Shown here piece after piece: positions 7,634 to 35,110 of a stretch of DNA of 58,161 nucleotides (its first letter is position 1; each line of letters begins with the position of its first letter). Source of the stretch: a virus; IMG/VR virus record IMGVR_UViG_3300049048_000078, positions 1 to 58,161 of that record. The stretch is one strand, 5' to 3'. The notes beneath the pieces are model-generated. The model ran no database searches and was not told where the DNA came from. It saw nothing but the letters and a program-made list of their open reading frames with translations. Both the position numbers and the translations under genes were made by a program.

Positions 7634-7681
7634 GCCCGGAGTGTTCCGGGCGGGTGGTGTTCCAGCGAACCCTACTGGGGG
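7634..7681 (-). promoter_or_regulatory. Two-box late element, copy 1
   Basis: Minus-strand box A CCCCCAGTAGGGTTCGC (7665-7681) and box B GGAACACT (7640-7647) are separated by 17 bases and lie just before the holin ATG. The TAG inside box A is the stop codon of the upstream gene. Box B sits in a CCGGA/TCCGG hairpin. Six more copies occur in the late region. Confidence 0.75.
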
Positions 7682-8040
7682 TTGTTCTGCGTGGCGCGCG
7701 ACGTGAATCTCGGCTCGTTGGGCGGGTGGTATTCCGTGGGGTAGTTCTTCCGCGCGAACTCCTTGATGTAGGCGTTGCGGCAGTGGCCCGGCCCCTGCCA
7801 GAAGAACAGCAGATCAATCGGCCGCATGAACAGCCGCCCGAACACCTTGCCATCGCGGTGCGCGCGGTAGCAGCGGGCACTGAGGGTTTCGTCGGCGTAG
7901 CTGATGGTGCCGTCCAAAGGCGGGATCAGTGCGTTCGCGAGCTGGTCAACGGAGATGAATACCTGCTCGCCGTAGGCCCGCAGCAGCGACAGAGCACGCT
8001 TAAGCCGCGTCTGCTGCGGCGTTAAACTGGATACCTGCAT
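7672..8040 (-). CDS. Hypothetical phage protein
   Basis: 122 residues. It begins with a helical domain (MQVSSLTPQQTRLKRALSLL) and continues with VFISVDQLANALIPPLDG and a basic FGRLFMRPIDLLFFWQGPGH segment. No known family, membrane span or signal. Its stop codon is formed by box A of the late element, and its start lies inside the 3' end of the DUF4376-like gene. Position between fibre genes and holin suggests a tail-assembly or late accessory role. Confidence 0.6.
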   Translation of the reverse strand: MQVSSLTPQQTRLKRALSLLRAYGEQVFISVDQLANALIPPLDGTISYADETLSARCYRAHRDGKVFGRLFMRPIDLLFFWQGPGHCRNAYIKEFARKNYPTEYHPPNEPRFTSRATQNNPQ

Positions 8041-8479
8041 CGAGGGCCTCCTCTTCGATAGATGGCGGCCAGCCGCCGGTGTAGTCGTAGCTGCCGGGAT
8101 CCGCGCTGGCTTCCATGGCCATGCGGTGGACCTCGGCGGCGGTGAAGATCGCGGTATCGCTGGCGGCCGTGGCCATGACGATGCCTTGCGCCAGGGCGGG
8201 CGTCATGGTCACGAACACGGGCGGGGGCGTGAAGGTGAGCGTTTTCCACTGCAGCCCGGCGGGGATGTTGCTGCCCAGAAGCACCAGGCCGAGTTGCTGC
8301 GTGCGGCTTTTCTGGTCGCTGTGGAACCAGTGCGCACCTACCTTCACGCCCAGCGCGGCGCGGCGGTCACGCTCGGCTTTGATCGCCTCCCACACTTGGG
8401 CGGCAGGCGTGAGTTGCGGCCCGCTGGGGAAGCGGACAATGACCAGCCCGCCAACGGTCTCGGTGATCGGCTGCGTCAT
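8000..8479 (-). CDS. DUF4376-type tail-associated protein
   Basis: 159 residues. The core reads AIKAERDRRAALGVKVGAHW then FHSDQKSRTQQLGLVLLG, the DUF4376 signature found next to, or fused to, phage tail fibre genes. The C-terminal half contains FVTMTPALAQGIVMATAASD and a helix with EVHRMAMEASADPG. Probably a tail-fibre assembly or tip protein. Start set by a four-base overlap with the preceding gene. Confidence 0.75.
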   Translation of the reverse strand: MTQPITETVGGLVIVRFPSGPQLTPAAQVWEAIKAERDRRAALGVKVGAHWFHSDQKSRTQQLGLVLLGSNIPAGLQWKTLTFTPPPVFVTMTPALAQGIVMATAASDTAIFTAAEVHRMAMEASADPGSYDYTGGWPPSIEEEALDAGIQFNAAADAA

Positions 8480-9102
8480 GCCACGCTCCGCAGGTGGTGA
8501 GCGACAAATGCGCTGGCGTGGCTGACGGTGGCTGTGTTGGTGACCCACACCTGCAGCGACCGGCGGAAATGCACCCCAGCAGGGTCCGGCACGGCTGTCC
8601 TGACCGCATTCGTCCCATCGCCGGGCGTTGCGGCGTACCCTAGCGCGATGAGCGCAACGCTCGCCGTGTAGGTGTCGGTCTGATCCAGCACGTTGCGCCC
8701 GTCCACCTCGATTTCCACGCGAGTCGTTCCCGTCGCTCCTTTCCAGAGCATCAGATAGCCGAGTGCCCCACGGCCGGTGACCGAAAGCACCGATGTGCGT
8801 GTGCCAACGGCAAGCGCCCCAAAGGTGCTTTTGGTGGCATTGGTCGCAATCTGGCCTGGAGTGGCGCCAGACGCGGCTAAGGCCGCAGCTTGCAGGGCAA
8901 CCGTGCGCTCATAGCTGCGCGCCACGTAGTTGGTCACATCGTCGGCAGGGTCAGTGGTGCTGCCGGTAGTGGCTGCATTCCGCTGGTACACCTCTTTGTC
9001 TGCGGGCGAGGTTACCCACTGCCATGCCGCTTGCTGGGCCGCACCGCTCACCCACAGCGGCGGCTGCAGCCCGTAGAAGCCTGCGCCTACGTATTTGGTC
9101 AT
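8476..9102 (-). CDS. Tail fibre or baseplate-like structural protein
   Basis: 208 residues, from the ATG at 9102. It begins MTKYVGAGFYGLQPPLWVSG and has a beta-rich C-terminal half (SVLSVTGRGALGYLMLWKGA, TTRVEIEVDGRNVL). No catalytic motif is visible. Small non-enzymatic beta proteins of this form commonly occur at fibre tips. The ATG overlaps the TAA of the fibre gene upstream, so both are made together. Confidence 0.6.
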   Translation of the reverse strand: MTKYVGAGFYGLQPPLWVSGAAQQAAWQWVTSPADKEVYQRNAATTGSTTDPADDVTNYVARSYERTVALQAAALAASGATPGQIATNATKSTFGALAVGTRTSVLSVTGRGALGYLMLWKGATGTTRVEIEVDGRNVLDQTDTYTASVALIALGYAATPGDGTNAVRTAVPDPAGVHFRRSLQVWVTNTATVSHASAFVAHHLRSVA

Positions 9103-9824
9103 TACGCGATCACCGTGGCGCGGTATTGGCCGGAGCTGGGCGCCGTGCCGAACGTGAGCTGCACCGTGTTGACGCCGTTGGCAACCCAATCCACCAACAC
9201 CCCGGCGTTGCTGGACACTTCTTTCACGCTGACAGCAACGTCCTGTGTATTCAGGTTGTGCGTGACGGTGATCGTGGTGGAACTGCCGTCGCCAACGTTG
9301 GCCGAGTACTTGCGGGCCGTGACTGCGGGGTCCACGGAGATAACGCCGCCGGAAATGCCGATGCCGTTGCCGGCCGTGTAACTGGTGCCGCCGCCCACTT
9401 GCGCCCAGACCAGAGCGGTGGTGCCGATAGTCACAGGGCCGTCCGTGGTCATGTTCCACTGGCTGTTTCCGTTGGTTGTGCCTTCGGATACAAACACAGC
9501 GGCCCCGACCACCTCGCTGGCCAAGTCGAAGTCCGCAGCGCGGCTCCAAGCACCCGAGGCAGCTACGTAAATTCCGTTGTCGGCGCCGGTGCTTTGGTTC
9601 TTGACCAGCACGCGGTCCCCGGCGATCACGCTCACGCCGTCGATCGTCTGCGCGCCCGACAGGGTGATGTTGGCCGTGGTGGCAGCGCGCACGGGGTCTT
9701 TCCACTTCCAGCCCTGCACAGCGGCGTCGAGCTGGGCTTTGGTCACTGCGTCTTGTGCACTGGTGCCATCGGCCAGGTTGGAGACCTTGAAGCCGTTGGC
9801 GTCGAGGGTGTTGGTGATTTTCAT
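9102..9824 (-). CDS. Phage tail fibre-like protein
   Basis: 240 residues, start at Met 9824 (MKITNTLDANGFKVSNLADG). It contains the common fibre module DGVSVIAGDRVLVKNQSTGA followed by DNGIYVAASGAWSRAADFD, known in many tail fibre and decoration proteins. The C-terminal part, SYTAGNGIGISGGVISVDP, resembles trimeric fibre shafts. The role is adsorption or fibre assembly. Which host structure is bound cannot be told. Confidence 0.8.
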   Translation of the reverse strand: MKITNTLDANGFKVSNLADGTSAQDAVTKAQLDAAVQGWKWKDPVRAATTANITLSGAQTIDGVSVIAGDRVLVKNQSTGADNGIYVAASGAWSRAADFDLASEVVGAAVFVSEGTTNGNSQWNMTTDGPVTIGTTALVWAQVGGGTSYTAGNGIGISGGVISVDPAVTARKYSANVGDGSSTTITVTHNLNTQDVAVSVKEVSSNAGVLVDWVANGVNTVQLTFGTAPSSGQYRATVIA

Positions 9825-9834
9825 GGTCGGATCC

Positions 9835-10170
9835 TCAGTTGAAATAGGCCTTGCCCGCGATGGCACCGCCGTGAGTGATTTGCACGATGTTTTCGTCCAC
9901 CCAGGTCACATCGCCAAACACCTGGCGCCCAAGGGTGTCCACAACAGAAACTGAGGGGTAACGCCCCAGGTTGTGCGCAGCGGTCCAGATTGCGAGCGGG
10001 ATGGCTTGTGTGTGCGTGTAGGTGCTGCCACCACCGGGGCCAGGCGGTCCAGGCGGGCCCTGCTCCGCAGCAGTCACGATCTCGATGACCTCGACTTCCT
10101 CAAGCAGGATCTCATCCGCAACCTCTTGCGTCAGGATCTGGACGTCCTCGACAACAACCAGGTCGGTCAT
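9835..10170 (-). CDS. Small tail protein with collagen-like linker
   Basis: 111 residues. An acidic beta-rich N-terminus (TDLVVVEDVQILTQEVADEI) leads to a short collagen-type linker (QGPPGPPGPGGG), then a C-terminal domain beginning IWTAAHNLGRYPSVSVVDTL and containing VTWVDENIVQITHGGAIAGK. The AHNLGRYPSVxVVD pattern ends many phage fibres and neck proteins. Likely a trimeric virion appendage. Confidence 0.72.
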   Translation of the reverse strand: MTDLVVVEDVQILTQEVADEILLEEVEVIEIVTAAEQGPPGPPGPGGGSTYTHTQAIPLAIWTAAHNLGRYPSVSVVDTLGRQVFGDVTWVDENIVQITHGGAIAGKAYFN

Positions 10171-10526
10171 GGCCGCGTCACCTCTGGCGAGACGGACACC
10201 GAACCTTCGGCCAAGCGGGTCACCTCCCCGCTCGGGTGCTCGATTTCCAGGTCGTAAACGCCGCCGTCCCAGGTGATCCCGGCCGTGTCCTCGTCGCTCA
10301 CGTAGAGGTCGACCGTGCCGGCCGCGCCCCCCAACGTGATGCGGTCGTTGTCGGTCGTGAGGCTCAGAAGTGGCGTTTCGGATTCGACTTCGGCGCGCAC
10401 CTGCATGCGTGCAGTGCAGCCGGTGAGGTCCACTGGCACTGCAGGCGTGCCGGCCTTCCACGTGAGCCGCTTGCGGAACGTGGCGCCCTGGTAGATCGTG
10501 AACTTGAGCTTGGCCGGCTTGGTCAT
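10167..10526 (-). CDS. BppU/DUF2479-like N-terminal-type tail protein
   Basis: 119 residues from Met 10526. The start KLKFTIYQGATFRKRLTWKA, followed by PVDLTGCTARMQVRAEVESE and an ending with GGVYDLEIEHPSGEVTRL, matches small phage baseplate or tail adaptor proteins with an immunoglobulin-like fold. It is the first gene after copy 2 of the late element, starting two bases from the B box region. The longer possible start (10553) would lie inside the element. Confidence 0.7.
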   Translation of the reverse strand: MTKPAKLKFTIYQGATFRKRLTWKAGTPAVPVDLTGCTARMQVRAEVESETPLLSLTTDNDRITLGGAAGTVDLYVSDEDTAGITWDGGVYDLEIEHPSGEVTRLAEGSVSVSPEVTRP

Positions 10527-10527
10527 G

Positions 10528-10576
10528 CCCCGCAGTGTCCCGATGCAGGACAAGCGGGGCGAACCCTACTGGGGGG
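10528..10576 (-). promoter_or_regulatory. Two-box late element, copy 2
   Basis: Minus-strand box A CCCCCCAGTAGGGTTCGC (10559-10576) and box B GGGACACT (10534-10541) are 17 bases apart, directly before the ATG at 10526 and 7 bases after the stop of the 604-residue gene. Confidence 0.75.
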
Positions 10577-10582
10577 CTTCGA

Positions 10583-12831: not shown

Positions 12832-14729
12832 ACGGACAGGAGGTGGTTGTCGGACAGGGCTTTGATCTCCAGCCCGCCCGGGATTGAAAGGATGTCGCTC
12901 AGCTCTCTGGCGCCGGTGTCATCCACGACGAACACCCAGCTGCGCAGCACCTCGCGGGAGATGGCGGCCAGCTTCAGGAGGTTGACGACCAGCGCCCCCG
13001 TGAGCGGATCGGCAGCGGCGAAGGTCGAGAACGATGCGTTGTCGTCCTCCGGCACTGGTATTTCCAGCACCTGGGTGCCGTCGAACCGCACAAGGATCTG
13101 GGCGGAATAGAACTCGGAAGTGCTGAAGGCGAAGGTGCTTTCTTCAGGCGGCCGGGCGGGATCAGCGTCTGCCCAAATCTTCACTCCCGTCGTGACCGTC
13201 GCGCTCTTCACGCGGCGCGTGATCGAGAACCGCGTGATCGGATCGAAGAAGATGAAAGTGGAACCACCGCCCCCAGCGCTGGGCACTTCATAGAGGTAGG
13301 TGCCGGTCGTGGCATAAGTCACTCCCCCGCCGCTGACGCTGGTTTCCGTGTCCACGTAGTCGATGTTTTCGCGGAACTCGGCGAGCGGCGTCGTGAAGGC
13401 GACCCCGTCGATGACCAGCGTATTGCCGGGGCGATAGTTCGTCACGCGCCTGCGAAAGGTGCGCGTCGCCACCGAGCTGGTGACGCCCCCGTCGACCATC
13501 TGGTACACCGCGCGCCGGACATCGAGGTCGTCTCGGTCCTGGGTTCGGGTCGATGTGAACGCCTCGATCTCCACGTTCTGCCCTCGGAGATCAAATCCCC
13601 CTCCGCCGGTCCTGCTCCACGAGTTCGCGCCGACCTGGCGGTGATAGCTGTCCAGGTAGGTCACGAATGTGCCCGTGTACCCAGGCGGGACGACAGGCGG
13701 CTCGTTGTACGAAGTCCCGCCCGTCTCCTCCGTGGGCGTTCCGCTGACCGTGGCCGCTTTGGGCACCAGCGACGTGATGGTCAAGGAGGTGTCCGTGACG
13801 GCCAAATCGACGACAGCCGAGTCCCCGCCGCGCGAGAACATCATGCGGATCGTGTTCCCGTCAGCGCTGAAGGAGACTGAGGTCCTCACCGGTACATAGT
13901 CGTCCGGCACATCCAGCGTCGCGATGAGCTCGCCCACGGGTGACGTGCTGCTGGGCTCGTAAGGCCCGCCGTAGAGCTGCAGCTTGTGCGGTTCTTCAGA
14001 GCCAGGATCCATCAGCACCGGGACGAGCTGCATGGCCCAGGTCGTGTTGGCCGACGAGCGCCGGGCGAAAGGGATGCTCCCGATTTCGCTGCGAAACGTG
14101 GCCACGGCTTGCATGTTGCGGAAGACGAACGAGTTCTCGTCGTACACCCCGTACTGGTAGGCGGCAGCGTTGATGCCGAGCATCCCAGGGCCCCAGGCCG
14201 GCAGGTTCTCGATGGTGTCGCCCGCAATGCCCACAAAGTAACTGGCCCCAGAGCTGTTGCTGAAAACCGCCTTCCCGCCGGAGAACCCGTTCACCTTGCG
14301 CGCTCTCCACTTACCGGTGCAGACCCGCGTTCCCTTGCGGACTTCAGGGGTCAGCACATAGGGCTGCGGCGTGTTCTCGGTGCCCGACAGGATGTGCCCT
14401 GGCACTGCGCCCCCCGCCATGGTCGTGAACACGATGCCGATACCGCTGCTGCGCTGGGCGTCGTCCCCCGGCCGGGTTTGCACGGTCACGTGCGGGGTGT
14501 TCCCGATGATCGCCATGGTGTACGGTGACCCATCTGGCAGCAGGCCCTGCTCATTGGGGTTCGGCACCACAGATAGCCGGGCGCGCTCGCGAAACGAGGC
14601 GTAGGCGCCCTGCAGCTGCGCGGCCTGGACCGGAGTCAGCGGGGGGCCGTAGACGATGAGGCGTGCTGGCACCTGCCCGGTGATCGGGTTGCCTTGAGCG
14701 GTCAACGAGTAGGGGTTCCACGGCCTCAT
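12828..14729 (-). CDS. Large tail protein of unknown function
   Basis: 633 residues from the ATG at 14729 (MRPWNPYSLTAQGNPITGQV). The frame is open another 1.2 kb upstream, but that part is the shadow of the next gene, and an ATGA overlap fixes the true start. The protein is dominated by beta strands and Gly/Ser/Thr turns (SVSFSADGNTIRMMFSRGGD, SVSGGGVTYATTGTYLYEVP) without enzyme motifs. This suggests a large tail-tip or receptor-binding component. Function cannot be named from sequence. Confidence 0.65.
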   Translation of the reverse strand: MRPWNPYSLTAQGNPITGQVPARLIVYGPPLTPVQAAQLQGAYASFRERARLSVVPNPNEQGLLPDGSPYTMAIIGNTPHVTVQTRPGDDAQRSSGIGIVFTTMAGGAVPGHILSGTENTPQPYVLTPEVRKGTRVCTGKWRARKVNGFSGGKAVFSNSSGASYFVGIAGDTIENLPAWGPGMLGINAAAYQYGVYDENSFVFRNMQAVATFRSEIGSIPFARRSSANTTWAMQLVPVLMDPGSEEPHKLQLYGGPYEPSSTSPVGELIATLDVPDDYVPVRTSVSFSADGNTIRMMFSRGGDSAVVDLAVTDTSLTITSLVPKAATVSGTPTEETGGTSYNEPPVVPPGYTGTFVTYLDSYHRQVGANSWSRTGGGGFDLRGQNVEIEAFTSTRTQDRDDLDVRRAVYQMVDGGVTSSVATRTFRRRVTNYRPGNTLVIDGVAFTTPLAEFRENIDYVDTETSVSGGGVTYATTGTYLYEVPSAGGGGSTFIFFDPITRFSITRRVKSATVTTGVKIWADADPARPPEESTFAFSTSEFYSAQILVRFDGTQVLEIPVPEDDNASFSTFAAADPLTGALVVNLLKLAAISREVLRSWVFVVDDTGARELSDILSIPGGLEIKALSDNHLLSV

Positions 14730-17573: not shown

Positions 17574-17588
17574 CGGTGCACCTGCCTA

Positions 17589-17993
17589 TCAGGGCACCAG
17601 CGAGATGATCTTGCCGGCGCCGTTGTTCCAGGGGATCTCGATGGATGCGCCATTCGTGGCCATGGGCAGGCCGGTGATCTCGTCCAGGTAGGCGATCAGG
17701 GGGGACGTGCCTGCGACACCGGTGTCCTTGTAGAGCACGGCGGCCTTGAGCGTGCTGCCGGAAGCGATGGCCCCGAAGTCCACGTCATCGGCGTCGAACA
17801 CGCCGCCGGTCACGCTTTTGTTGGCCAGGGTCTGGGCAGTGCCCACCGTGGAACCCAAATCGGACAGGAACTCGTGGGCCGTGCTGTAGGTGTAGCCGCT
17901 GGGCACCCACGCGACCTTGATGGTGTCAGAAGCGAAGTTGATCGAGGCCGAGAGGATCTTCTGGGCGCCTTTTGGGTAGAGGGTGTTGGACAT
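17589..17993 (-). CDS. Small tail structural protein
   Basis: 134 residues. It begins MSNTLYPKGAQKILSASINF and includes VAWVPSGYTYSTAHEFLSDL and KAAVLYKDTGVAGTSPLIAY. This type (YPxxKxxFLxGxInl...tvkv.lv.s.Y.yn..h..lsdl) is a recurrent small virion protein in tail fibre loci of many phages. First gene downstream of copy 3 of the late element, so it starts the 10.6-18.0 kb tail unit. Confidence 0.75.
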   Translation of the reverse strand: MSNTLYPKGAQKILSASINFASDTIKVAWVPSGYTYSTAHEFLSDLGSTVGTAQTLANKSVTGGVFDADDVDFGAIASGSTLKAAVLYKDTGVAGTSPLIAYLDEITGLPMATNGASIEIPWNNGAGKIISLVP

Positions 17994-18010: not shown

Positions 18011-18058
18011 GAGGCAGTGTTCCGAGGCGTGACGGCCCTGGCGAACCCTACTGGGGGG
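18011..18058 (-). promoter_or_regulatory. Two-box late element, copy 3
   Basis: Minus-strand box A CCCCCCAGTAGGGTTCGC (18041-18058) and box B GGAACACT (18016-18023) have 17 bases between them, 22 bases before the ATG at 17993. The small-RNA promoter starts only 7 bases away in the opposite direction. Confidence 0.75.
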
Positions 18059-19174: not shown

Positions 19175-19225
19175 TGTGCTGGTCCTTGGTGAGGTGCACA
19201 GGTTGCCCCATGTCCGGTCGCCGGG

Positions 19226-19243
19226 CCAGTCCTAGTGGGGGCG
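19226..19243 (-). promoter_or_regulatory. Two-box late element, copy 7 (divergent form)
   Basis: Minus-strand CGCCCCCACTAGGACTGG resembles box A but differs at the 3' end (GACTGG rather than GGTTCGC). Its distance to the GTG at 19174 (52 bases) equals that of copy 4 from its gene. Box B is not clear. It is the weakest member. Confidence 0.4.
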
Positions 19244-19266: not shown

Positions 19267-19293
19267 GAGTAACTCAGCGCTGACTTAGTCAGC
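19264..19293. repeat. Two abutting 15-bp palindromes
   Basis: GCTGAGTAACTCAGC (19264-19278) is followed without a gap by GCTGACTTAGTCAGC (19279-19293). Each is a perfect 7-1-7 palindrome and they differ at a few inner positions. They overlap the stop codon of the Arc-like gene. This could be a tandem operator or an extra RNA hairpin pair before the terminator. Confidence 0.6.
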
Positions 19294-19744
19294 TGGACTT
19301 TTTTGAGCGCTTCGGGTTCAGTGCGCGCGCCACTGAGTCACCCAACTCCCCCAGGTCTTTCGCGCCGGATTTCTCCATGAGCTCAGAGAGCGTAGCGGGC
19401 TGCGCTGAACCAGACGCACCGGGGGCCTGACCTTGCACAGCGCTCCCCCCGCCGAAGTGCACAGGCCGAAGGCTCTCCACCTGCAGTCGCTTGCTCAGCA
19501 GCGCAAGGTGCCTCATCGTGTTGTTCACTGATTTCACCGTCGCCCCGAGCTCGCCGTGCAGCAGCATTTCTGCAGTTCTGTCTGGTAGCTCGTCATCGAA
19601 AGAGGCCTGGAGGCGGGCGATGATTTCGCTGTTCATTGAGCGATTGTTTGCCTTGGCGGCTTCCGCGATCCGGTCGCGCATGCCATCAGGGAAGCGAACA
19701 ATGAATCGGTCCTGCAGCTCGCTCGGGTAGGGTTTCTTGTCCAT
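19289..19744 (-). CDS. Arc-family (ribbon-helix-helix) repressor, long form
   Basis: 151 residues. Residues 10-50 hold the Arc fold: a beta strand QDRFIVRFPDGMRDRIAEAA, then KANNRSMNSEIIARLQASF. The RFxxRFP strand contacts DNA and NRSMNSEI begins helix B. Unlike P22 Arc (53 residues) it has a 90-residue C-terminal extension with a helical segment (TVKSVNNTMRHLALLSKRL), perhaps for tetramerisation. It is divergent from a second, short Arc-like gene and an antirepressor, with repeated operator half-sites between them, as in the P22 immI region (mnt/arc/ant). Confidence 0.85.
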   Translation of the reverse strand: MDKKPYPSELQDRFIVRFPDGMRDRIAEAAKANNRSMNSEIIARLQASFDDELPDRTAEMLLHGELGATVKSVNNTMRHLALLSKRLQVESLRPVHFGGGSAVQGQAPGASGSAQPATLSELMEKSGAKDLGELGDSVARALNPKRSKKSS

Positions 19745-19756
19745 CCAAGGATCGTA

Positions 19757-19838
19757 ATGCCGACTTGGATTAATTTTTATGATTCCGACTTGACATCAAG
19801 CGGAGTTGCGCTCTATCCTTTGCATGCCAAGTCGGCAT
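19757..19838. promoter_or_regulatory. immI-type operator and promoter region
   Basis: Three copies of the half-site CCGACTTG: ATGCCGACTTGG (19757-19768), CCGACTTG (19785-19792) and, inverted, CCAAGTCGGCAT (19827-19838). The first and third form a perfect 12-bp inverted repeat. A plus promoter with -35 TTGACA (19790-19795) and -10 TATCCT (19814-19819, 18-base spacer) overlaps the middle copy. Binding by either Arc-like protein would block the antirepressor operon. Confidence 0.75.
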
Positions 19839-19849
19839 CAAGAGGATTT

Positions 19850-20020
19850 ATGAACGCCAAACCCAAAGACGGGCATCAGGTGATGCCGTATCCACTCCGG
19901 CTCCCCCCTGCGCTGCGCGAACAGTTGGCGCTGGAGGCCGCACGCAACCAACGCAGCCTCAACGGCGAAATTGTCTTTCGCCTGCAGCAGGCACCTCAAC
20001 CTCCAGGAGCACAAGCATGA
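19850..20020 (+). CDS. Short Arc-like ribbon-helix-helix protein
   Basis: 56 residues, close to P22 Arc in size. The core PYPLRLPPALREQLALEAAR then NQRSLNGEIVFRLQQA matches the beta strand, helix A and helix B of the Arc fold. The start at 19850 has AGAGGA seven bases upstream. A longer open frame would start inside the operator and is rejected. Its stop overlaps the antirepressor start (ATGA), so, like P22 Arc, it probably represses the operon it belongs to. Confidence 0.85.
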   Translation: MNAKPKDGHQVMPYPLRLPPALREQLALEAARNQRSLNGEIVFRLQQAPQPPGAQA

Positions 20021-20718
20021 GCGCCGCGGTCCCAGTGGTTGTGGAGTTTCTGGGCACCACGCTGCGGGGCGTGCTGAAAGATGGCGTCCGCTACGTGGCG
20101 CTGAAGCCCATCGTGGAAGGAATTGGCCTTGACTGGAAGAGCCAACATGCCAAGGTGGTGGCGGACGAGGTAATCGGACCAACTGTGGTGGAAATCACCA
20201 TGGTTGCCGAAGACGGCAAGAAGCGCGCAATGACCTGCATCCCCGAAGAATTTCTGCAGGGGTGGATGTTTACCGTCAGCCCAGGCAAGGTGAAAGCCTC
20301 CCTAAAGCAGAAGGTCATCCACTACAAACGCGAGTGCTACCGCGTTCTGCACGAGGCCTTCAACGCCGCATGCAGTACCGGCGGGCCGATCCGTGCTGAA
20401 TACTTGGCGGGCTATCACGAGCTGCAAGACGTGGTGGCGATCAAAGCAGCCAAATCCTCGGCGCCGTGGGCCGCCCACCTGAACGTCAACCGCGCGATCA
20501 ACAAGGCCGCAGGGATTGAAGCCGGGCAGCGCGGAGTGCTCCCACTCGGCAAGCTCGCATTCGTGTCCGTCGCCAACCAGGTGGCTTGCGCGGCGTTCTC
20601 GGCCGCCAACGATCACCACGACGGCTATGCCAACACCGTGGTTGCGCTCGGGAAGCTGACGCAGATGCTGCCGGCTTGCACCGTGCCGCTGGCGAAGAAG
20701 ATCGCGAGGAAAGCGTGA
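20017..20718 (+). CDS. Phage antirepressor with P22_AR_N domain
   Basis: 233 residues. The N-terminal domain (VPVVVEFLGTTLRGVLKDGV, RYVALKPIVEGIGLDWKSQH) is the P22 antirepressor N-terminal type. It continues with IPEEFLQGWMFTVSPGKVKA and a helical C-terminal region. P22 Ant binds and inactivates the lysogeny repressor, allowing induction of resident prophages. Here it would be held off by the two Arc-like proteins. The likely target is this phage's repressor at 46934 or that of other prophages. A GTG-started gene overlaps its stop. Confidence 0.88.
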   Translation: MSAAVPVVVEFLGTTLRGVLKDGVRYVALKPIVEGIGLDWKSQHAKVVADEVIGPTVVEITMVAEDGKKRAMTCIPEEFLQGWMFTVSPGKVKASLKQKVIHYKRECYRVLHEAFNAACSTGGPIRAEYLAGYHELQDVVAIKAAKSSAPWAAHLNVNRAINKAAGIEAGQRGVLPLGKLAFVSVANQVACAAFSAANDHHDGYANTVVALGKLTQMLPACTVPLAKKIARKA

Positions 20719-23880: not shown

Positions 23881-26684
23881 GCGCCCTTCCATTGCGAACC
23901 GTCCCAAGTCAGTACCTGTCCGGTTTGGTTGTCTCGGATGCGCCGGCCGACGGCAATGCCCTCGGTGGGCAGCGCGTCCATCGCTGGCGGCTTGCTGGGC
24001 TGGGACGCAGCGGCCTGGGCGCCCTTGGCTTGAGCAGCATCAGCCATCGCTGATCCGCTGGGACCAGCCCTCAGCCGGGCGGTTTCTACCTGGCTGGCAA
24101 GGCGCGCCTGCTTCTCAGCAATGGTCTTCGGGTCATCGCCCGGTTGTGGGAAGTAAGACCGGCTGAGCCCCTGCAGCTGCTCGCGGGTGTACGCCGCGCC
24201 AGTGTTCAGGGTCAGGGCAGCGTCAAGGGCATCGAGCTGAGCCGCCTCCACCCGCTGCCGGTCCTCCGGTCGAATGAAGTTCGCCACGCCCTCCGGCAGG
24301 GAGTTGATGAGAGAGGTGCCGACACCTGGGCGAGTGGCGCCGGGGTTCTTAGCGCCAATCTCGTTGATCAGCTTCAATGCGTTGTCCATGCGCAGTGCGT
24401 AGCCCGCGGACTTGGCTTGGTCTTCGGTGAGCTTCGGGCCTGCCGCGCCCGCCTTGAGGCGTGCTTCTTCGAGACCCGCAAGGGCCGTGATGCCGGCGCG
24501 CGAGTTGTTCCCTCGCTCTGTGACCAAAGTGCGCGCCATGTCGTTCTGGCGGTTTGCCGCACCTTCCGCAGCGGAAGCCGCCGCCTGCAGCCCGGCGCGT
24601 TGCATGTCCCCTTGCTCCCGCATGGCTGCTTGATCCATGCCTGGCTGGGCTGCCCGCAACGCCAGATCGTTCGACAGCATGGCCTGATACGCGGACACGT
24701 CTGGCGACTCACCGCCGTGACCGCCACGGAAGCGGTTCATGCCAGCGTTGCTCCATTCGGGACGGTTCATGATGCTCAGCGCACTCGTGCGGGCGTTCTC
24801 CAGATCCTTGCGGGCCTGCCAATCGTTGCCGCTGTGGCGCACGATCGGAGCCTGCACAGATGAGGCGGCGCTGGGCAATGCCGCCATTGCCGATGCAGCG
24901 CCACGGCGGGACAGGCTTTCCGCAGCCCCCTGGTTCTGTGCGCTCACTTCACCAACTGGCAATGGTGCGGGCGAAGGCGTCGCAGCTGCACTCATCATCG
25001 TGGCCGCTCTACTCAGCGCACCATTGCCCGTCGATGCCGGAGCAGCCGGCGGTGCCGTCCCTGCATAAGCCAGGCTTCGCGGATCAGTCAGACTGTTCAT
25101 GCGCTGCGGCGTGGGCGGCGCCGGCGGTGGCGTCACCTGTGCGGCTGGTTCGAACGTTGATGGGCCGGTGGCCTGCACCCCCTGGCGCAGCTGGTCGGCG
25201 GTCGCGCGCGTCGTCTTGCCGTGGTCGGTGAGTTGAGGGTAGAAGCCGAACACGGCGCGGTCCTCGACGAGCCCGCCATCGGCATACCTGCGCGGCTGAT
25301 TGGGCATGGCTCCGAGGCGATCAGCCCAGCCCATTGGGGCGGCAGGAGCAGGCGCGGAGGCCATGCGCTGTGCTGCGCTTTGAGTTCCCACCGCGGGCTG
25401 TGCAGTGCCAGGTGCCGACGCTACGGACGACAGCGATCGAGCGGGAACGGTGCTCACCGTGCCGCGATTCGGCTGAAAACCGCTGGCCACTTGCGTGACA
25501 CTGGCGTCCTGCGTGGCCGCCGCCGCGTCCCCGAAGCTGTTCCGGGCCGTGGCTGGTGCTGGTGCCGGCGGCATCCCTGCCTCGACAGTGGCGCGCGACG
25601 ATTGGCCCGATGCCGCGAGCTTGGCCGCGTTGCTGGCCGCGTAGGGGTTGGGGTCGTACGTCGTGCTGCGTGGATCGGAGAAGCCGGTCATGCGGGTAGC
25701 GGCCGCGAGGTTGCTGCCCAGGGCGGGCTGCGCAGGTGCAGGCGCCGGGGCCGGCGCAGTGGTGCCAAAGGTGTCGGTCGCCGAAGTGCGGACCTGCGTG
25801 GTGCCGGGGTCGCGCGCTACGGCCGCGGCATCGCCGAAGCTATTGGGACGGGTCGGGTCAACGACGCCGCCATCTGCGAAGCCCTGGGCCATGCCACCCT
25901 GGGCCTGCCGCTGCCGTTCACGCTCCATGGCAAGTGAGTCGGACTGCGCTTGGCTGGCCGCTGCCTCTTGTTGCGCCACGGCCAGCGCCGCGTTCCGCCG
26001 CCCAAGGCGCTCACGCTCCATCTGGTCGAACCCAGCCACTACCCCGCCATCAGCGTAGAGCTGTTCCGGCGCCTGCGCCATGCGCTCCGCAGCGCCTGGG
26101 GCGAAGCCACGGGCCTCCGCCACTTCCGCGTCGGTCTGGCCTCCATCCACGCCGTTCACTGGGGTGTGCGTGGCGTCCTTCATGGCTTTGAGCACCGCTG
26201 CACCAATGGCCATGACCTGCTCGGGCGGGACTTCGAATTCACCGTTCGACAGGCGCACGGGCACGGTGCCCATCTTCTCCAGTGCGCTGGGGCCGATCTC
26301 GGCCGTGCTGTCGGCCGGCATGATGAACGTGCCGGGCTCGGCTTCAGTGGCGATGCTGTCGCTGGTCCCGGTGCCAGGGCCGCGCACCAGACCACCCTTG
26401 GCCAGGTACTGCGGCTGCTGTTGCTTGTAGCCCATGGCCTCCATGCGGGGGATCATGGCTTGCAGCTGCGCGGCGCGGGTGTCGGTTGCGGGCGCTGCAG
26501 CCACGGCCGGAGCTGGTGCTGGGGTCGCCTGCGGGTAGCCCATCGCGGCCATCTTCGGGATCAGGTCGCGCAGGCCGGAGAGGCCTCGGGCGCCGAAGCC
26601 TACTTGGCCGCCGTCGGCGAGGTGCTGGGGGTTGGTTGCGCGGTGCGCGAGACCGCGCTGCGCCGGGGGCTGGAAGCCTTGCAT
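23877..26684 (-). CDS. Large internal virion protein with ADGG(x)V repeats
   Basis: 935 residues, rich in Ala, Pro and Gln. Short motifs of the form (A/L)(D/K)GG(L/V/Q)V recur five times (LADGGQVGF, LAKGGLVRG, YADGGVVAG, FADGGVVDP, YADGGLVED). Low-complexity PAPAPAP linkers separate them. NSFGDAAA with nearby SxTQVxS is also duplicated. The last 200 residues are helical (SAGYALRMDNALKLINEIGA). ADGGxV motifs are common in phage ejection and tape-like proteins. No lysozyme motif is seen. Copy 4 of the late element lies before the ATG. Confidence 0.65.
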   Translation of the reverse strand: MQGFQPPAQRGLAHRATNPQHLADGGQVGFGARGLSGLRDLIPKMAAMGYPQATPAPAPAVAAAPATDTRAAQLQAMIPRMEAMGYKQQQPQYLAKGGLVRGPGTGTSDSIATEAEPGTFIMPADSTAEIGPSALEKMGTVPVRLSNGEFEVPPEQVMAIGAAVLKAMKDATHTPVNGVDGGQTDAEVAEARGFAPGAAERMAQAPEQLYADGGVVAGFDQMERERLGRRNAALAVAQQEAAASQAQSDSLAMERERQRQAQGGMAQGFADGGVVDPTRPNSFGDAAAVARDPGTTQVRTSATDTFGTTAPAPAPAPAQPALGSNLAAATRMTGFSDPRSTTYDPNPYAASNAAKLAASGQSSRATVEAGMPPAPAPATARNSFGDAAAATQDASVTQVASGFQPNRGTVSTVPARSLSSVASAPGTAQPAVGTQSAAQRMASAPAPAAPMGWADRLGAMPNQPRRYADGGLVEDRAVFGFYPQLTDHGKTTRATADQLRQGVQATGPSTFEPAAQVTPPPAPPTPQRMNSLTDPRSLAYAGTAPPAAPASTGNGALSRAATMMSAAATPSPAPLPVGEVSAQNQGAAESLSRRGAASAMAALPSAASSVQAPIVRHSGNDWQARKDLENARTSALSIMNRPEWSNAGMNRFRGGHGGESPDVSAYQAMLSNDLALRAAQPGMDQAAMREQGDMQRAGLQAAASAAEGAANRQNDMARTLVTERGNNSRAGITALAGLEEARLKAGAAGPKLTEDQAKSAGYALRMDNALKLINEIGAKNPGATRPGVGTSLINSLPEGVANFIRPEDRQRVEAAQLDALDAALTLNTGAAYTREQLQGLSRSYFPQPGDDPKTIAEKQARLASQVETARLRAGPSGSAMADAAQAKGAQAAASQPSKPPAMDALPTEGIAVGRRIRDNQTGQVLTWDGSQWKGA

Positions 26685-26704: not shown

Positions 26705-26752
26705 GCAGGCAGTCTCCTTTCGCGCGGGGCGCGCGTCGAACCCTACTGGGGG
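26705..26752 (-). promoter_or_regulatory. Two-box late element, copy 4
   Basis: Minus-strand box A CCCCCAGTAGGGTTCGA (26736-26752) and box B GGAGACT (26711-26717) are 18 bases apart, before the 935-residue gene and 6 bases after the adaptor gene's stop. Confidence 0.7.
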
Positions 26753-26757
26753 CGCTG

Positions 26758-27435: not shown

Positions 27436-27449
27436 GGCCGTCGATCAGG

Positions 27450-27896: not shown

Positions 27897-27954
27897 GTTC
27901 TCGATCTCCTGAGGGAATGTGGCGCCCCAGCGAGTGCCGGGGCGCGATGCGGCA

Positions 27955-28323: not shown

Positions 28324-28354
28324 GATGGCTCCTTGATGTGGGGGGTGTTAAATG

Positions 28355-28380
28355 CGAGAGAAGGGCCGAAGCCCTTTCTC
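28355..28380 (-). terminator. Possible terminator or processing hairpin after the capsid gene
   Basis: Minus-strand stem GAGAAAGGGC/GCCCTTCTC with a TTCG tetraloop, 9 bases past the capsid stop. The T-run is interrupted (CTTCTCTC), so it may only reduce read-through. That would help make capsid mRNA more abundant than downstream messages. Confidence 0.5.
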
Positions 28381-28389
28381 TGTCTAGCC

Positions 28390-29433: not shown

Positions 29434-29458
29434 TTGGTTCTCCTTGGGGCCGTGCTAC

Positions 29459-30394: not shown

Positions 30395-30424
30395 GCGTCA
30401 TGCACTCCTGATTGCATGCCGAGG

Positions 30425-30634
30425 TCAGTAGCCACCAACGTCGGCGATAGGCGCCGGGGCCGGGGTTTCCAGCGCCAGCAGTTCTTTCCAAGCCGCAATC
30501 CGGCCGCGTGTTTCAGCGGTGCGAATGGCGTCCATTGACGGGCTGTCGTTCTTCTCTCGCAGCGTGGCGATCTGCTTCTGTGCATGCGCACTCACAGCAC
30601 GCCACGTGGGGGAGTTGAGGTCGAGGCCCTTCAT
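30425..30634 (-). CDS. Small conserved phage protein before the scaffold
   Basis: 69 residues: MKGLDLNSPTWRAVSAHAQK then QIATLREKNDSPSMDAIRTA ETRGRIAAWKELLALE. The pattern SPxWxAVxxxAxxxIxxLRxxN...D...TAxLRGRIxxLKxLLAL is seen in small proteins encoded near portal genes of many phages. Role unknown. Its position between portal and scaffold suggests head assembly. First gene after copy 5 of the late element. Confidence 0.72.
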   Translation of the reverse strand: MKGLDLNSPTWRAVSAHAQKQIATLREKNDSPSMDAIRTAETRGRIAAWKELLALETPAPAPIADVGGY

Positions 30635-30635
30635 G

Positions 30636-30684
30636 GCTCTGCAGTTTTCAAGAATGGGAGCAAACCGGCGAACCCTACTGGGGG
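30636..30684 (-). promoter_or_regulatory. Two-box late element, copy 5
   Basis: Minus-strand box A CCCCCAGTAGGGTTCGC (30668-30684) and a B-like box GAAAACTG (30643-30650) are 17 bases apart, directly before the ATG at 30634 and 7 bases after the portal stop. Confidence 0.72.
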
Positions 30685-30691
30685 TGGCCGC

Positions 30692-32881
30692 TCAACGCAC
30701 GCCATCCGCCTCGGGTGTCTCGATGCCCTCCTGAACCCCCAGCTCGGGGCTGGTAGGCGTCAGCGGGTCGGTGTTTGACGGCACGGAAACTGGCTCCGGC
30801 TGGGTCATAGCGGCCTCGGCCAATTGAGGAACGATGGTCCCGCCGTTGCGATCCACCACACCCACAGATGCGGCGAGCTCGTCTGCCAAGGGTGCGACGC
30901 CTGGGTTCGTCGCCAGCACTTGGCCGGTTTGGACACCGCTGTAGAGGGTCTCCATGTCCGTGTTCGACTTCTCCGACTCGACTTTGCTTGCCTGAGCTTC
31001 CAGGAGCTTGGCCTTCGCCACTGCCACCGGATCCGGAGCGACCTGCTGGCGCTGCGCCTTCTGCTCGTCGGAAAGCTGGAAGCGCTTGGGGTCCAGGCGC
31101 TGGCCCTTGCACAGCTCGGCAGCCAGTTTTGCTGGATCAAGCTCGTACGCCGGGTCCTTGGCGACCTGCAGCAGCGACATCAGGAATTGCTGCTGGGCGT
31201 CGCGCTCCACCAGGGCAGAAGATGCGCGCACGTCGATCTCGAAGTCGCCCTTGATGCTCTCGTCGTCGCTGTAGCTCATCATCCAGTCGAAATACCGCTG
31301 GATGTGCGGGCGGGTCATGTAGTCGTCGAACCGCTTGGCCAGGCGGCGCAGGACGCTGGTCGCGTTGTTGTTCTGCATCTGCATGCCGCCCAGGGTGTTG
31401 GGTGCATCGCCGCGGATGCCCTGCAGCATGGCGGGCATGCCGGTGGTGTCCTCGGCCATCTTCATGGCGAAGTTGATGATGTTCATCAACTCGTTCTGGA
31501 CACTGGAAACAGTGAAGCTGGCGAAAGCCTTGGTCACATCGGTAACATCCGAACCGGCCTCCGCGCGCCAGAGTTTTCCGGGCCGTAGCGTCCAGTGTCC
31601 GTCTTGCGGCGTGATCCCATTGCCAATCACGACTTGGGGGGCGGCCGATAAACCGCTGTTGTCCATCATGGCGCGCGTGGCGCCGTTGAGCATGCGCTGC
31701 ACAGTGCGGATTTGGCGGGCGATGCCAACCCCCCATGGCATGCCGGGGCGGCGCTGCCACGCCAGCACGTCGTACGGGAACTGGCCGTCTTCCTGCGGGC
31801 TGAGCACTACCTTCACCAGGCGGTCGTTGATCATCACCGCCATGGTGGGCATCCGGTCTTCATCGCCCTCTTCCAGCTCCACACCGAAGCGCGCCAGGTA
31901 CTCGCGGGCGGCGTGGCCGTAGAAGATCCACATCTCGAACTCGTCGTCGCTGGCGCGGTAGACGGCTTCGGTGCCTTCGCGGGTGCGGGCAGGGCCCTCG
32001 CGCAGCACGGCCAGGAGTTCGGCCTGGTCGTAGCTCTCGTCTGCCAGCATCTCCTTGAGTTGGCGGCGGCCGATGAACTCGCGCTCCCAGGTGTAGCTTC
32101 CGTTGTGGATGTTCTCGCCGCACGCTGGGTCCGGGAAGAAGTTCCAGCAGTCGATGCGCTTGGAGCCTGGCTTGATGTCGTCGATCTTGATGAACTCGGT
32201 CAGGCCGGTCACGGGGTCTTTGCGCGTCATCCGCGCAGTGCGCTGTACCGGAAACGGCCCCTTCAACACACCCGAGCCGATCCGGGCCGAGTCTTCGATG
32301 ACTTGGCGCACCTCGCCGTGCCAGTTGCTCTCGACCAGAGGATCTTCGATGGCGCGCTGCAGCCGCTCGGCCGCCTCCTGCGCCTGCGCCTGCTTCTCCT
32401 CAATGGCGTAGCGCGCCTCCACGGGATGCTGCATCCCCATGGCCTGTGCGAGCTTGGTCAACTGCGCGGGGCTCAGTTCGGGGAGGGGCGTCGGCTTGAT
32501 CTCCCAGGCCCTGTCGTCGGTCGGCAGCAGCATATCGGCTACCCGTGCGCTGGCTGCGTCCACATAGGGCCGCGTGATGTTCAGGAAGACCACAGACCGC
32601 GACGGCCCCTGTTCTTTGGCCGGCGTGCCGATCAGCGCGGACTTGCGGCTGCGATAGAGCTGGTTGGCGTTCTGGAAGGCACGGTTCGCATCGTCGATGC
32701 CTTGGTAGTGCTCTTCATCCTCGGTCCATTCCTCCTCGATGCCAGAGCCAGCACGGCCCGCAATGGCCTCGCGGCGCTTGGAAAGGAGCGTCAGAACGAA
32801 CTCGCCGCGGATGTCGCGCAGTGGTTCGCCGGATTCTTTGGCCTGGGGCATGCCGCCCCCTTGCAGTTCGGTGGCGTGCAT
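30692..32881 (-). CDS. Portal protein
   Basis: 729 residues, large for a portal and in the size range of P22 gp1 and related podovirus portals. Recognisable parts: EHYQGIDDANRAFQNANQLY RSRKSALIGTPAKEQGPSRS, then DAASARVADMLLPTDDRAWE, a stem region with YDVLAWQRRPGMPWGVGIAR and a wing with MQNNNATSVLRRLAKRFDDY. The last 120 residues are helical with Gln/Ala. A second ATG at 32851 has a stronger ribosome site (AAGGGGG) and may be the true start. The portal ring is the DNA entry and exit channel and docks the terminase, whose genes lie directly upstream. Confidence 0.85.
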   Translation of the reverse strand: MHATELQGGGMPQAKESGEPLRDIRGEFVLTLLSKRREAIAGRAGSGIEEEWTEDEEHYQGIDDANRAFQNANQLYRSRKSALIGTPAKEQGPSRSVVFLNITRPYVDAASARVADMLLPTDDRAWEIKPTPLPELSPAQLTKLAQAMGMQHPVEARYAIEEKQAQAQEAAERLQRAIEDPLVESNWHGEVRQVIEDSARIGSGVLKGPFPVQRTARMTRKDPVTGLTEFIKIDDIKPGSKRIDCWNFFPDPACGENIHNGSYTWEREFIGRRQLKEMLADESYDQAELLAVLREGPARTREGTEAVYRASDDEFEMWIFYGHAAREYLARFGVELEEGDEDRMPTMAVMINDRLVKVVLSPQEDGQFPYDVLAWQRRPGMPWGVGIARQIRTVQRMLNGATRAMMDNSGLSAAPQVVIGNGITPQDGHWTLRPGKLWRAEAGSDVTDVTKAFASFTVSSVQNELMNIINFAMKMAEDTTGMPAMLQGIRGDAPNTLGGMQMQNNNATSVLRRLAKRFDDYMTRPHIQRYFDWMMSYSDDESIKGDFEIDVRASSALVERDAQQQFLMSLLQVAKDPAYELDPAKLAAELCKGQRLDPKRFQLSDEQKAQRQQVAPDPVAVAKAKLLEAQASKVESEKSNTDMETLYSGVQTGQVLATNPGVAPLADELAASVGVVDRNGGTIVPQLAEAAMTQPEPVSVPSNTDPLTPTSPELGVQEGIETPEADGVR

Positions 32882-32882
32882 G

Positions 32883-33647
32883 TCAGTACCCTACTTCTCT
32901 ATCCAGTGGAGCCCAGCCGCCGCCGGTCTGGCGGGGCGGTGCTGGGCGGGTGATGGCCTTGCGCTTCATCATCAGCGCGTATCGGCTCGCGCTCATCAGG
33001 TCGTCCAGCTTCTTGACCACCTTGCCGTCCTTGCGGTGGTACAGCTTGAACTCTTGGAACCAGTCGCCGAGGTGGGAGAACACTTTCCAGCGGCCAGTCT
33101 GCATGCGCTCCAGCATCTCCATCAGGCCGGCCTCAACCCCATTGGAGCCGTCTTCGAAGGTCGCGCGGTCTTTGAGCATCAGCAGGCCCGCCGCAGCGTA
33201 TTGCTTGGCCAACTGCTCGCCAGAGCCTTTGTCGTGCTGTTCTCCGTCGTGCGGCCACGCCGTCGGCACCCAGACGCCCCAGGCCTTCATGGTGGTGGCG
33301 TGAATCACGGGCACCGCCTGGCTGCGGCGGTGTGCTTGGACGACGTAGATGCAGTCGTTGTCGCGGTCCCAGGCCAACTGCACACCCGCCGTCGGGTGGT
33401 CCCAACCGAAGTCGATACCGTTGATGCGCGCCCAGTGCGCGGGGATGGGGAACGGGGCAACCTTGATCGCATCCTCCTCGATGGGGAAGATGCGGCCGCT
33501 GCCGAGCGTGGGAATGCCCTTCGCCCGGGCTTCACGCTCATGCGGCGGCGAGCTGTCCCACAGCTCCTTCTTGGTCTTGGCGTCCAGGTGGGGCACATCG
33601 TCCCAGCCGGCGGTAACCAAGTAGCGCGTTGCGGTGACCGCTGGCAT
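32883..33647 (-). CDS. Terminase large subunit, nuclease part (separate gene)
   Basis: 254 residues. YLVTAGWDDVPHLDAKTKKE then SSPPHEREARAKGIPTLGSG is the linker region of large terminases, and INGIDFGWDHPTAGVQLAW begins the RNase-H-fold nuclease with the first catalytic Asp. KKLDDLMSASRYALM near the C-terminus carries the last acidic residue. This half cuts the concatemer. In related phages it is fused to the ATPase. Here it starts at an ATG overlapping the ATPase stop (TGATG), with AGAGGAGG 7 bases upstream. Confidence 0.85.
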   Translation of the reverse strand: MPAVTATRYLVTAGWDDVPHLDAKTKKELWDSSPPHEREARAKGIPTLGSGRIFPIEEDAIKVAPFPIPAHWARINGIDFGWDHPTAGVQLAWDRDNDCIYVVQAHRRSQAVPVIHATTMKAWGVWVPTAWPHDGEQHDKGSGEQLAKQYAAAGLLMLKDRATFEDGSNGVEAGLMEMLERMQTGRWKVFSHLGDWFQEFKLYHRKDGKVVKKLDDLMSASRYALMMKRKAITRPAPPRQTGGGWAPLDREVGY

Positions 33648-34372
33648 CAGGCGGCCTCCTCTTTGGACTCGGGCTCAAGGAACATCAGCACTGTGCCCGA
33701 CGTGCCCTCCAGCGGCGTGAAGGTGATGTAGACGATCCCGTTGGTGGTGGCGGTGCGGATCAGGCACTCGCTGTAGATCTCCAGGGGCGGCTCCTCGTCC
33801 AGCCATATGCCGTGTCGCTCCGTGCCCTCGAAGCTACCCCTCCCTTGCTGGTAGGACTTCAACCCCAGCTCCGACCATTTGCCGGAGACATGCTGGACCA
33901 GCACCGTGTCAGCCAAGTCGGAGACGCCCTGCTTCCATGCGATCTTCCCGATCGAGTCCCCGTAGATCAGGCCAGTGCCCGCGAAGTGCTTCTCTGGGCC
34001 AGTGCCGCGCACGGGGCCGAACAGCTTGCGCTGCACGATGTCCCGCGTCGTTTCATTGGTCTTGCCAGCCGCCCAGAACTGAACCGGATGTTCGAACCGC
34101 CGGCCCTGCCACCAATCCGGGTAGCGGCCGGTGAGGTGCAGCGCCGTCTCGTACCCGCCCATGCCCTCGGTCTTGCCGACACGGTTGGCGGCCATCGCGC
34201 ACCGCTCCCGGTATTTCGCCCCGGCCTCGAAGAATTCCATGTGCTTGGGGTAGAGCTCGCGCCGTAGCGGCCCCGTCTCCGGGTACATGTCATCGATCTT
34301 GCGGCGCGACAGCGCCTTGTCGATCTCGTCCAACATGGCTTGGCGCAGGGCTGGGTTCAGGTCAGCCACCAT
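33647..34372 (-). CDS. Terminase large subunit, ATPase part (separate gene)
   Basis: 241 residues. A Walker A-type motif ANRVGKTEG lies near residue 62, and the Walker B-like HGIWLDEEPP near 195 supplies the acidic pair. GIVYITFTPLEGTSGTVLMF is the coupling motif before the usual nuclease domain, but the reading frame ends after EPESKEEAA. The motor half that pumps DNA into the head is thus complete without the nuclease. It overlaps the small-subunit gene by 11 bases. A frameshift of a once-fused gene is possible, but the strong ribosome site of the next cistron argues for a working two-gene form. Confidence 0.85.
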   Translation of the reverse strand: MVADLNPALRQAMLDEIDKALSRRKIDDMYPETGPLRRELYPKHMEFFEAGAKYRERCAMAANRVGKTEGMGGYETALHLTGRYPDWWQGRRFEHPVQFWAAGKTNETTRDIVQRKLFGPVRGTGPEKHFAGTGLIYGDSIGKIAWKQGVSDLADTVLVQHVSGKWSELGLKSYQQGRGSFEGTERHGIWLDEEPPLEIYSECLIRTATTNGIVYITFTPLEGTSGTVLMFLEPESKEEAA

Positions 34373-35060
34373 TGAGCAGCGCCTCCCGCATGCGCTTGAG
34401 CTCGTCGGTCGCCATGTCTGCCAGGGTGCTGGGCTGTCGCTCCGCCTTGTCGTCCAAACCGAACGCCCGGCGCTCCGCCACCTGAAGCTTGTCGAAGGTG
34501 TCGGACAGCTGTTTGATGCAGGAGATCCGCACACCCAGGGACAGCGCTCGCTGAACACGGGCTTTGGCAGCGGCCAGGTCAGCGGGCTCAGCGTGCGGCC
34601 CAGCGAGAACCTTCGCCATCGCCTCCTGTTCCGTCGGTGTCGCGGCCTGGAGTTCGGCAAGCATTCCAGCGGCAACTGCGCGGGCCTCGGAGAGGTCTTT
34701 CCGGTGTGCCCGGATGACCCTGGTGTTCATCTCTGCCGCAACAAGGACCGTTTCCGTTACATCCTTTTGCGCTTCGATTACCGTTTCGCGCAACAAAGCT
34801 GCGTCAGTGGCCTGCTTGATTACCTCGCGAAGGTCCTTGCTCCAAGCGTGCTCCTTGGACTTCCGGCTGATCTGGGCATACGAAACGCCGTGTTTCGCTT
34901 CAAGCTCTCGGAGCGTGAAATGGCCGGTTCGGTAGTCGCGCTCGACGGCTTCCCAGTCCACTTTGTGCCGCCCACGGGGCTTCTCCCCGGGCTGCTTGTT
35001 GCGCTTCGGGGTCTCTTGCGTCGGGTTTTGCGCTTCCTGTTGCGGGCCATGTTTCGCCAT
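34362..35060 (-). CDS. Terminase small subunit
   Basis: 232 residues. After a basic Pro-rich tail comes a helix-turn-helix (YRTGHFTLRELEAKHGVSYA, QISRKSKEHAWSKDLREVIK) of the kind that binds the packaging site. A long helical domain (TVLVAAEMNTRVIRAHRKDL, AAKARVQRALSLGVRISCIK) then forms the ring, ending with a segment that probably contacts the large subunit. Family lengths are commonly 150-230. It is first in the packaging-head operon, directly after copy 6 of the late element. Confidence 0.85.
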   Translation of the reverse strand: MAKHGPQQEAQNPTQETPKRNKQPGEKPRGRHKVDWEAVERDYRTGHFTLRELEAKHGVSYAQISRKSKEHAWSKDLREVIKQATDAALLRETVIEAQKDVTETVLVAAEMNTRVIRAHRKDLSEARAVAAGMLAELQAATPTEQEAMAKVLAGPHAEPADLAAAKARVQRALSLGVRISCIKQLSDTFDKLQVAERRAFGLDDKAERQPSTLADMATDELKRMREALLNGG

Positions 35061-35110
35061 AGCCCGGAGTGTTCCGAGCCGGGCGCCATGCGGCGAACCC
35101 TAGTGGGGGG
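35061..35110 (-). promoter_or_regulatory. Two-box late element, copy 6
   Basis: Minus-strand box A CCCCCCACTAGGGTTCGC (35093-35110) and box B GGAACACT (35069-35076), separated by 16 bases, directly before the terminase small-subunit ATG. Box B again lies in CGGAACACTCCGGGCT, nearly identical to copy 1. As the first late operon this is the best place for a late promoter. Confidence 0.75.

What the first reader, a model, noticed from the sequence alone, without database searches (positions are those of the whole stretch)
7634..35110. Seven copies of a two-box element at the heads of late transcription units
Seen: on the minus strand, box A (CCCCCAGTAGGGTTCGC) and box B (GGAACACT) recur with a spacer of 16-18 bases directly before genes at 7631, 10526, 17993, 26684, 30634 and 35060, plus a weaker copy before 19174. 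Distances from box A to the start codon fall into two groups (33-34 and 48-52). Neither box looks like a standard -35 or -10. The constant, promoter-like spacing and the positions only at operon heads suggest phage-specific late promoters or activator sites. Box A can also form a CCC/GGG hairpin, so an RNA-level role is possible.
Basis: partly seen in the sequence, partly recalled or inferred. Interest (0 to 1): 0.74.

Follow-up and report, generated by a model that had tools for sequence, protein, structure and literature searches.

The report
Phage late promoters making leaderless messages
A repeated DNA switch stands in front of the virion and lysis genes of a large family of bacterial viruses; the pattern fits a promoter worked by one small phage DNA-binding protein, and at about 60% of copies the message seems to start right at the first codon, with no ribosome-binding leader.

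Summary
The repeat is real and, on sequence evidence, is a family of phage late promoters. Six strong copies, all on the minus strand, head the late units at 35060, 30634, 26684, 17993, 10526 and 7631 (0.21 expected by chance for box A); the seventh, before 19174, is degenerate. Across F116-like temperate podoviruses I collected 181 distinct sites. Aligned on box A alone, box B resolves into a -10-like element (xAxxxT). In 58 sites not used to define it, both key bases were present in 52. Box A (CCC-N4/5-GGG-TTCG) is centred near -42, where class II activators sit. Start codons are bimodal: in 108 of 155 assignable sites they lie 6-10 nt after the -10 T, where transcription should begin (leaderless mRNA; Shine-Dalgarno in 5 of 108, against 30 of 47 in the rest). 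Candidate activator: ORF 35644-36168, PHROG 8117 (winged helix, coiled coil), the only non-structural window gene shared by nearly all site-bearing phages; of 81 loci fetched by this protein alone, 73 carry the site. In 23 of 32 diverse homologues its tail carries a beta-sliding-clamp-binding motif, hinting at replication-coupled late transcription, as in T4 but built differently. No transcript or binding data exist.

The parts
35093..35109 (-). Box A (activator site plus -35 region) of the terminase small subunit unit
   Evidence: matrix score 46.6
35068..35073 (-). -10-like element AACACT; ATG at 35060 follows 8 nt after its last T (leaderless class)
30668..30684 (-). Box A before 30634 (69-aa ORF)
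   Evidence: score 35.8
30643..30648 (-). -10-like element AAAACT; ATG at 30634, 9 nt after the T (leaderless class)
26736..26752 (-). Box A before 26684 (935-aa ORF)
   Evidence: score 33.2
26711..26716 (-). -10-like element GAGACT; ATG at 26684, leadered class
18041..18057 (-). Box A before 17993 (134-aa ORF, PHROG 644)
   Evidence: score 44.6
18016..18021 (-). -10-like element AACACT; ATG at 17993 preceded by AGGAG, leadered class
10559..10575 (-). Box A before 10526 (119-aa ORF)
   Evidence: score 45.9
10534..10539 (-). -10-like element GACACT; ATG at 10526, 8 nt after the T (leaderless class)
7665..7681 (-). Box A before the holin gene 7631
   Evidence: score 48.3
7640..7645 (-). -10-like element AACACT; ATG at 7631, 9 nt after the T (leaderless class)
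19225..19241 (-). Degenerate seventh copy before 19174 (left half of box A only)
   Evidence: score 7.0; control maximum 9.4
35644..36168 (-). Candidate late activator (PHROG 8117): winged helix, beta strands, coiled coil, C-terminal QMDLL tail; most likely start is one of the ATGs near 36168

Best explanation
Each element is a late promoter for host RNA polymerase. The phage protein of PHROG 8117 (35644-36168) binds as a dimer to the CCC-N4/5-GGG dyad centred near -42, next to the TTCG at the -35 position, and recruits polymerase to a weak -10 (xAxxxT, lacking the usual T at -12). Transcription starts about 8 nt after the -10 T, preferably at an A. In about two thirds of assignable sites across the family, and four of six in the window, this is at or within about 2 nt of the ATG, so the first gene of the unit would be translated from a leaderless mRNA; the others carry a short leader, usually with a Shine-Dalgarno sequence. 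The activator gene lies upstream of the first late unit on the same strand and would turn on all late units together. Shown: element, spacing, phage-wide conservation, gene co-occurrence, start-codon geometry, predicted fold. Inferred: promoter function, binding, start sites, leaderless translation, activation rather than repression.
For: Enrichment in the window. 84 sites in the window, related IMG/VR records and Acidovorax phage AP1, on one strand per phage. Aligned on box A alone, A at +37 and T at +41 are each 94%; hold-out: 52 of 58 unseen sites have both, with 58 hits on the gene strand against 1 on the other. Footprint over nine site pairs: box A 93% identical, -10 region 69%, spacer 28%, upstream 28%. 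Selected by protein only: 73 of 81 loci have a site scoring at least 14; reversed control of 2.68 Mb has none above 9.4. In 299 genomes of one bacterial family, site and protein coincide in 6 genomes (Fisher P 6e-7). The gene is the only widely shared non-structural one. Model: winged helix with pLDDT near 90 and a long helix; nearest PDB folds are winged-helix domains, many of them DNA-binding regulators. Leaderless class: 108 sites, ATG 6-10 nt after the -10 T, pyrimidine before it in 100, Shine-Dalgarno in 5; leadered class 30 of 47 with one, and A at the same start position in 29 of 47 although no start codon was assigned there.
Against: No 5'-end, binding or expression data. The -12 T is nearly absent (2%), which is odd for a sigma-70 -10. 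Eight of 81 loci lack a site above threshold, although at least three of these show a diverged one. Co-occurrence is partly inherited with the phage backbone. G009 has sites but no gene found (a 30-kb fragment), and the G012 homologue lacks the coiled coil. A repressor would bind the same place. PHROG 8117 has no tested function.
Confidence: 0.8

Rival explanations
1. Box A is a repressor operator: the protein, or another factor, keeps late genes off in the lysogen by occluding the -35 region.
For: A site overlapping the -35 region suits a repressor as well.
Against: The promoters have no good -35 and a poor -10, so a bare promoter should be weak. The gene lies at the end of the early genes next to the terminase genes; in F116 it is gene 37, well apart from the annotated repressor gene 29. 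Footprints hold the -10 as well as box A.
Confidence: 0.08
2. The element is read by a different polymerase or sigma factor: a phage sigma-like protein or RNA polymerase, with PHROG 8117 serving another purpose such as replication initiation.
For: -12 T missing; weak RepL similarity (E 0.017, below cut-off); clamp-like tail typical of replication proteins.
Against: No sigma or RNA polymerase domain among the Pfam-scanned early-region ORFs. Sites are spread over late operon heads with a fixed -10, unlike an origin. -11A/-7T are the host -10 hallmarks.
Confidence: 0.09
3. RNA-level element: a CCC/GGG hairpin or another signal in the transcript that controls translation or termination.
For: In the leaderless class inverted repeats span the -10 more often than expected: 6 pairs or more in 27% against 8% in shuffles.
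Against: Box A arms are invariant, so there is no covariation; spacing to the -10 is exact; the repeats are absent from the leadered class and differ in register, with only weak signal at any single register.
Confidence: 0.03

Closest known systems
Phage Mu Mor/C-activated middle and late promoters (PMC4390567)
   Same: Phage-coded small dimeric activator; dyad site centred at -43.5 replacing the -35, with a recognisable -10; host sigma-70 polymerase
   Different: No relation of sequence found or tested; here one regulator heads six units, the dyad is CCC/GGG followed by TTCG, and about two thirds of starts are leaderless
P2/P4 Ogr/Delta late promoters (own knowledge)
   Same: One early phage activator turns on several late operons, each with its own site
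   Different: P2 sites lie near -55 and the activator is a zinc-binding protein; here near -42 and a winged helix
T4 late transcription with gp33, gp55 and sliding clamp gp45 (PMC7892883, PMC2988020)
   Same: C-terminal sliding-clamp-binding motif on a late-transcription protein
   Different: [quoted passage not shown] here a sequence-specific DNA-binding protein and presumably the host beta clamp; clamp binding is only predicted

Membership tests
Activator-dependent phage late promoters (Mu Mor/C-like architecture) | Dyad site replacing or overlapping the -35, centred near -41 to -44 | tested here: met
   CCC-N4/5-GGG arms: outer pairs complementary in 89-99% of 181 sites for the centre at index 6.0 (70-99% for 6.5), i.e. 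-42 or -41.5
Activator-dependent phage late promoters (Mu Mor/C-like architecture) | Recognisable -10 at fixed distance | tested here: met
   A+37/T+41 in 52 of 58 hold-out sites; -12 T missing
Activator-dependent phage late promoters (Mu Mor/C-like architecture) | Phage-coded DNA-binding activator required for transcription | not testable with these tools
   Candidate by co-occurrence only
Mor/C protein family | Sequence or fold of Mor/C | tested here: not met
   PHROG 8117 only, function unknown; no Mor/C among Pfam hits of the window protein or in the top 50 PDB matches
Leaderless mRNA | Start codon at or within a few nt of the 5' end, no Shine-Dalgarno | tested here: inconclusive
   Geometry and missing Shine-Dalgarno met; the 5' end itself was not measured
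Beta-sliding-clamp-binding proteins | C-terminal QLxLF-type motif (PMC4549789) | tested here: met
   23 of 32 nonredundant homologues, shuffled mean 3.8, maximum 10; some subgroups lack it; binding untested
T4-type sliding-clamp-activated late transcription | gp55-like sigma and gp33 coactivator | tested here: not met
   No such domains in the scanned early-region ORFs

The most novel reading that the evidence does not exclude
Late transcription in this phage family is coupled to replication by tethering the site-specific activator to the host beta clamp, an independent invention of what T4 does, and it feeds largely leaderless late mRNAs.
Probability: 0.3. Interest if true: 0.85.

Novelty: new variant of a known kind. 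Interest (0 to 1): 0.62.

Why it matters
It would give a function to PHROG 8117, an uncharacterised protein family, and a late-gene switch to F116-like podoviruses in Comamonas, Delftia, Variovorax, Acidovorax, Pseudomonas and probably Shewanella, for which no late promoter was found in the literature searched. It predicts leaderless mRNA as a regular design for virion and lysis genes in Gram-negative phages, and offers a testable second case of clamp-linked late transcription. The matrix locates late units and corrects start codons in these phages.

Tried and rejected
Hairpin promoter around the -10 (as for N4 virion polymerase): a single-register test gave only weak signal (best adjacent-to-loop register z 2.4 in all sites, 1.5 nonredundant); the free-register excess is limited to the leaderless class; kept as an unexplained observation. 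Sigma-54 reading (GG-N10-GC): fits one site by eye, not the others. Consensus sigma-70 scan: its two hits between 16500 and 36400 do not overlap any site. Box B as Shine-Dalgarno: GGA is not kept, and leadered copies have a separate Shine-Dalgarno. The seventh copy: its gene is not the orthologue of the G007 gene that has a site. Searches of a literature library for the motif letters, F116 late promoters and Acidovorax phage AP1 gave nothing relevant. One alignment was too divergent for both collection scans; a tighter one worked.

Full report
Observation. Box A is found six times in the window, always on the minus strand and always before a late gene (0.21 expected). Box B as a word is not enriched. 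Aligning the copies and their relatives on box A shows why: the constant part of box B is an A and a T at fixed positions +37 and +41. The seventh copy is degenerate (scores 7.0).

What the window is. Protein families and relatives show a temperate podovirus-like prophage: terminase small subunit, a split large terminase, a portal of the HMO-2011/F116 type, holin and lysozyme on the minus strand; DnaB, RusA, RecT and YqaJ; a P22-like Arc/Ant cassette inside the late region. The nearest named relative is Acidovorax phage AP1; more distant relatives are Pseudomonas phage F116 and its kin.

Conservation of the element. A scan of IMG/VR gave 42 stretches, most of them related phages. In the 23 records searched with up to 2 mismatches, all sites lie on one strand of each phage and reversed controls are nearly empty. 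A matrix built from these sites and applied to loci fetched only by the protein found sites in 73 of 81 loci, with no control hit above 9.4 in 2.68 Mb at a threshold of 14; some of these loci come from contigs already used to build the matrix, which is why the hold-out below was done. Three of the other eight show a clearly diverged site on inspection. In unseen sites the A/T pair holds in 52 of 58. Over nine site pairs between the window and its closest relatives, box A is 93% identical while its surroundings are at 28%. AP1 has five sites before the corresponding units. F116 has one strong site, 2 nt after the stop of its homologue (gene 37) and before the terminase small subunit. A Shewanella phage shows the same box with TAAGG. 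Whole bacterial genomes carry the full pattern rarely and mostly in clusters; in 299 genomes, pattern and protein coincide (6 of 10 pattern genomes; P 6e-7), and both genomes with several sites have the protein.

Geometry. With the -10 T at -7, TTCG falls at -36 to -33 and the dyad CCC-N4/5-GGG is centred at -42 or -41.5, the place of class II activators and close to Mor on the Mu middle promoter (-43.5, PMC4390567). The -10 keeps -11A and -7T but has T at -12 in only 2% of sites, so it should be weak without help (inference).

Start codons. In 155 of 181 sites a start codon could be assigned. In 108 it lies 6-10 nt after the -10 T, mostly 8; 100 of these have a pyrimidine just before the codon, 5 have a Shine-Dalgarno sequence of 4 bases or more, and 65 have an in-frame stop inside the promoter, so no upstream start is possible there. 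Of the other 47, 30 have a Shine-Dalgarno, and 29 have A at the same expected start position though no start codon was assigned there. Together this points to transcription starting at that A, and hence to leaderless mRNA in the first class. This is inference until 5' ends are mapped.

The regulator. Of the predicted genes in the window, 35644-36168 is the only non-structural one found in most site-bearing records (16 of 18; other early genes at most 7). It lies upstream of the terminase small subunit gene. It belongs to PHROG 8117, function unknown. The AlphaFold model has a confident winged helix, a beta part, a long helix and a tail; the best PDB matches are winged-helix domains such as DtxR and AraR, with no match to the whole protein. 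The tail carries QMDLL; related forms (QLDLL, QAQLF, QVALPL and others) occur in 23 of 32 nonredundant homologues against 3.8 in shuffled tails. This fits the C-terminal beta-clamp motif QLxLF (PMC4549789). Some subgroups lack it (for example L179, L189), yet still have box A, so clamp binding cannot be essential everywhere.

Mechanism and limits. I commit to class II-like activation by PHROG 8117 at host-polymerase promoters (0.8 for late promoters with an activator site; somewhat less for this protein being the activator; about 0.75 for leaderless starts given that they are promoters; 0.3 for clamp-coupled late transcription). No experiment supports any step yet.

Noticed in passing
32883-34372 (-): The large terminase is split in two ORFs (ATPase part 33647-34372, nuclease part 32883-33647) joined by TGATG with GAGGAGG before the second ATG. 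The two parts also lie in different frames in G002, G007 and G018, so it is not a sequencing error.
   Followed up: partly
19289-20718: A P22 immI-like cassette (Arc repressor, Ant-like P22_AR_N protein) sits inside the late region; the degenerate seventh element lies at its edge.
   Followed up: no
G009, G018 and G019 (sites at 13192, 25185 and 37563): ORFs of 3136, 3170 and 2463 aa begin 7 nt after the -10 T of a site: very large proteins predicted from leaderless messages.
   Followed up: no
-10 regions of leaderless-class sites, e.g. G001:54238: Inverted repeats of differing sequence span the -10 in about a quarter of leaderless-class sites, more than in shuffles, and not in the leadered class. 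Unexplained.
   Followed up: partly
L179, L185, L189, L200, L207: A subgroup of homologues ends without the clamp motif and its sites read TTTCC instead of TTCGC after GGG: possible co-variation of protein and site.
   Followed up: no
AY625898 22776-22851; OM049504 18320: Annotated starts of the terminase small subunit in F116 and AP1 differ from the ATG placed by the promoter and are probably wrong.
   Followed up: partly
1-1500: Probable host flank: an HGSNAT-type membrane acyltransferase gene at 509-1300.
   Followed up: no
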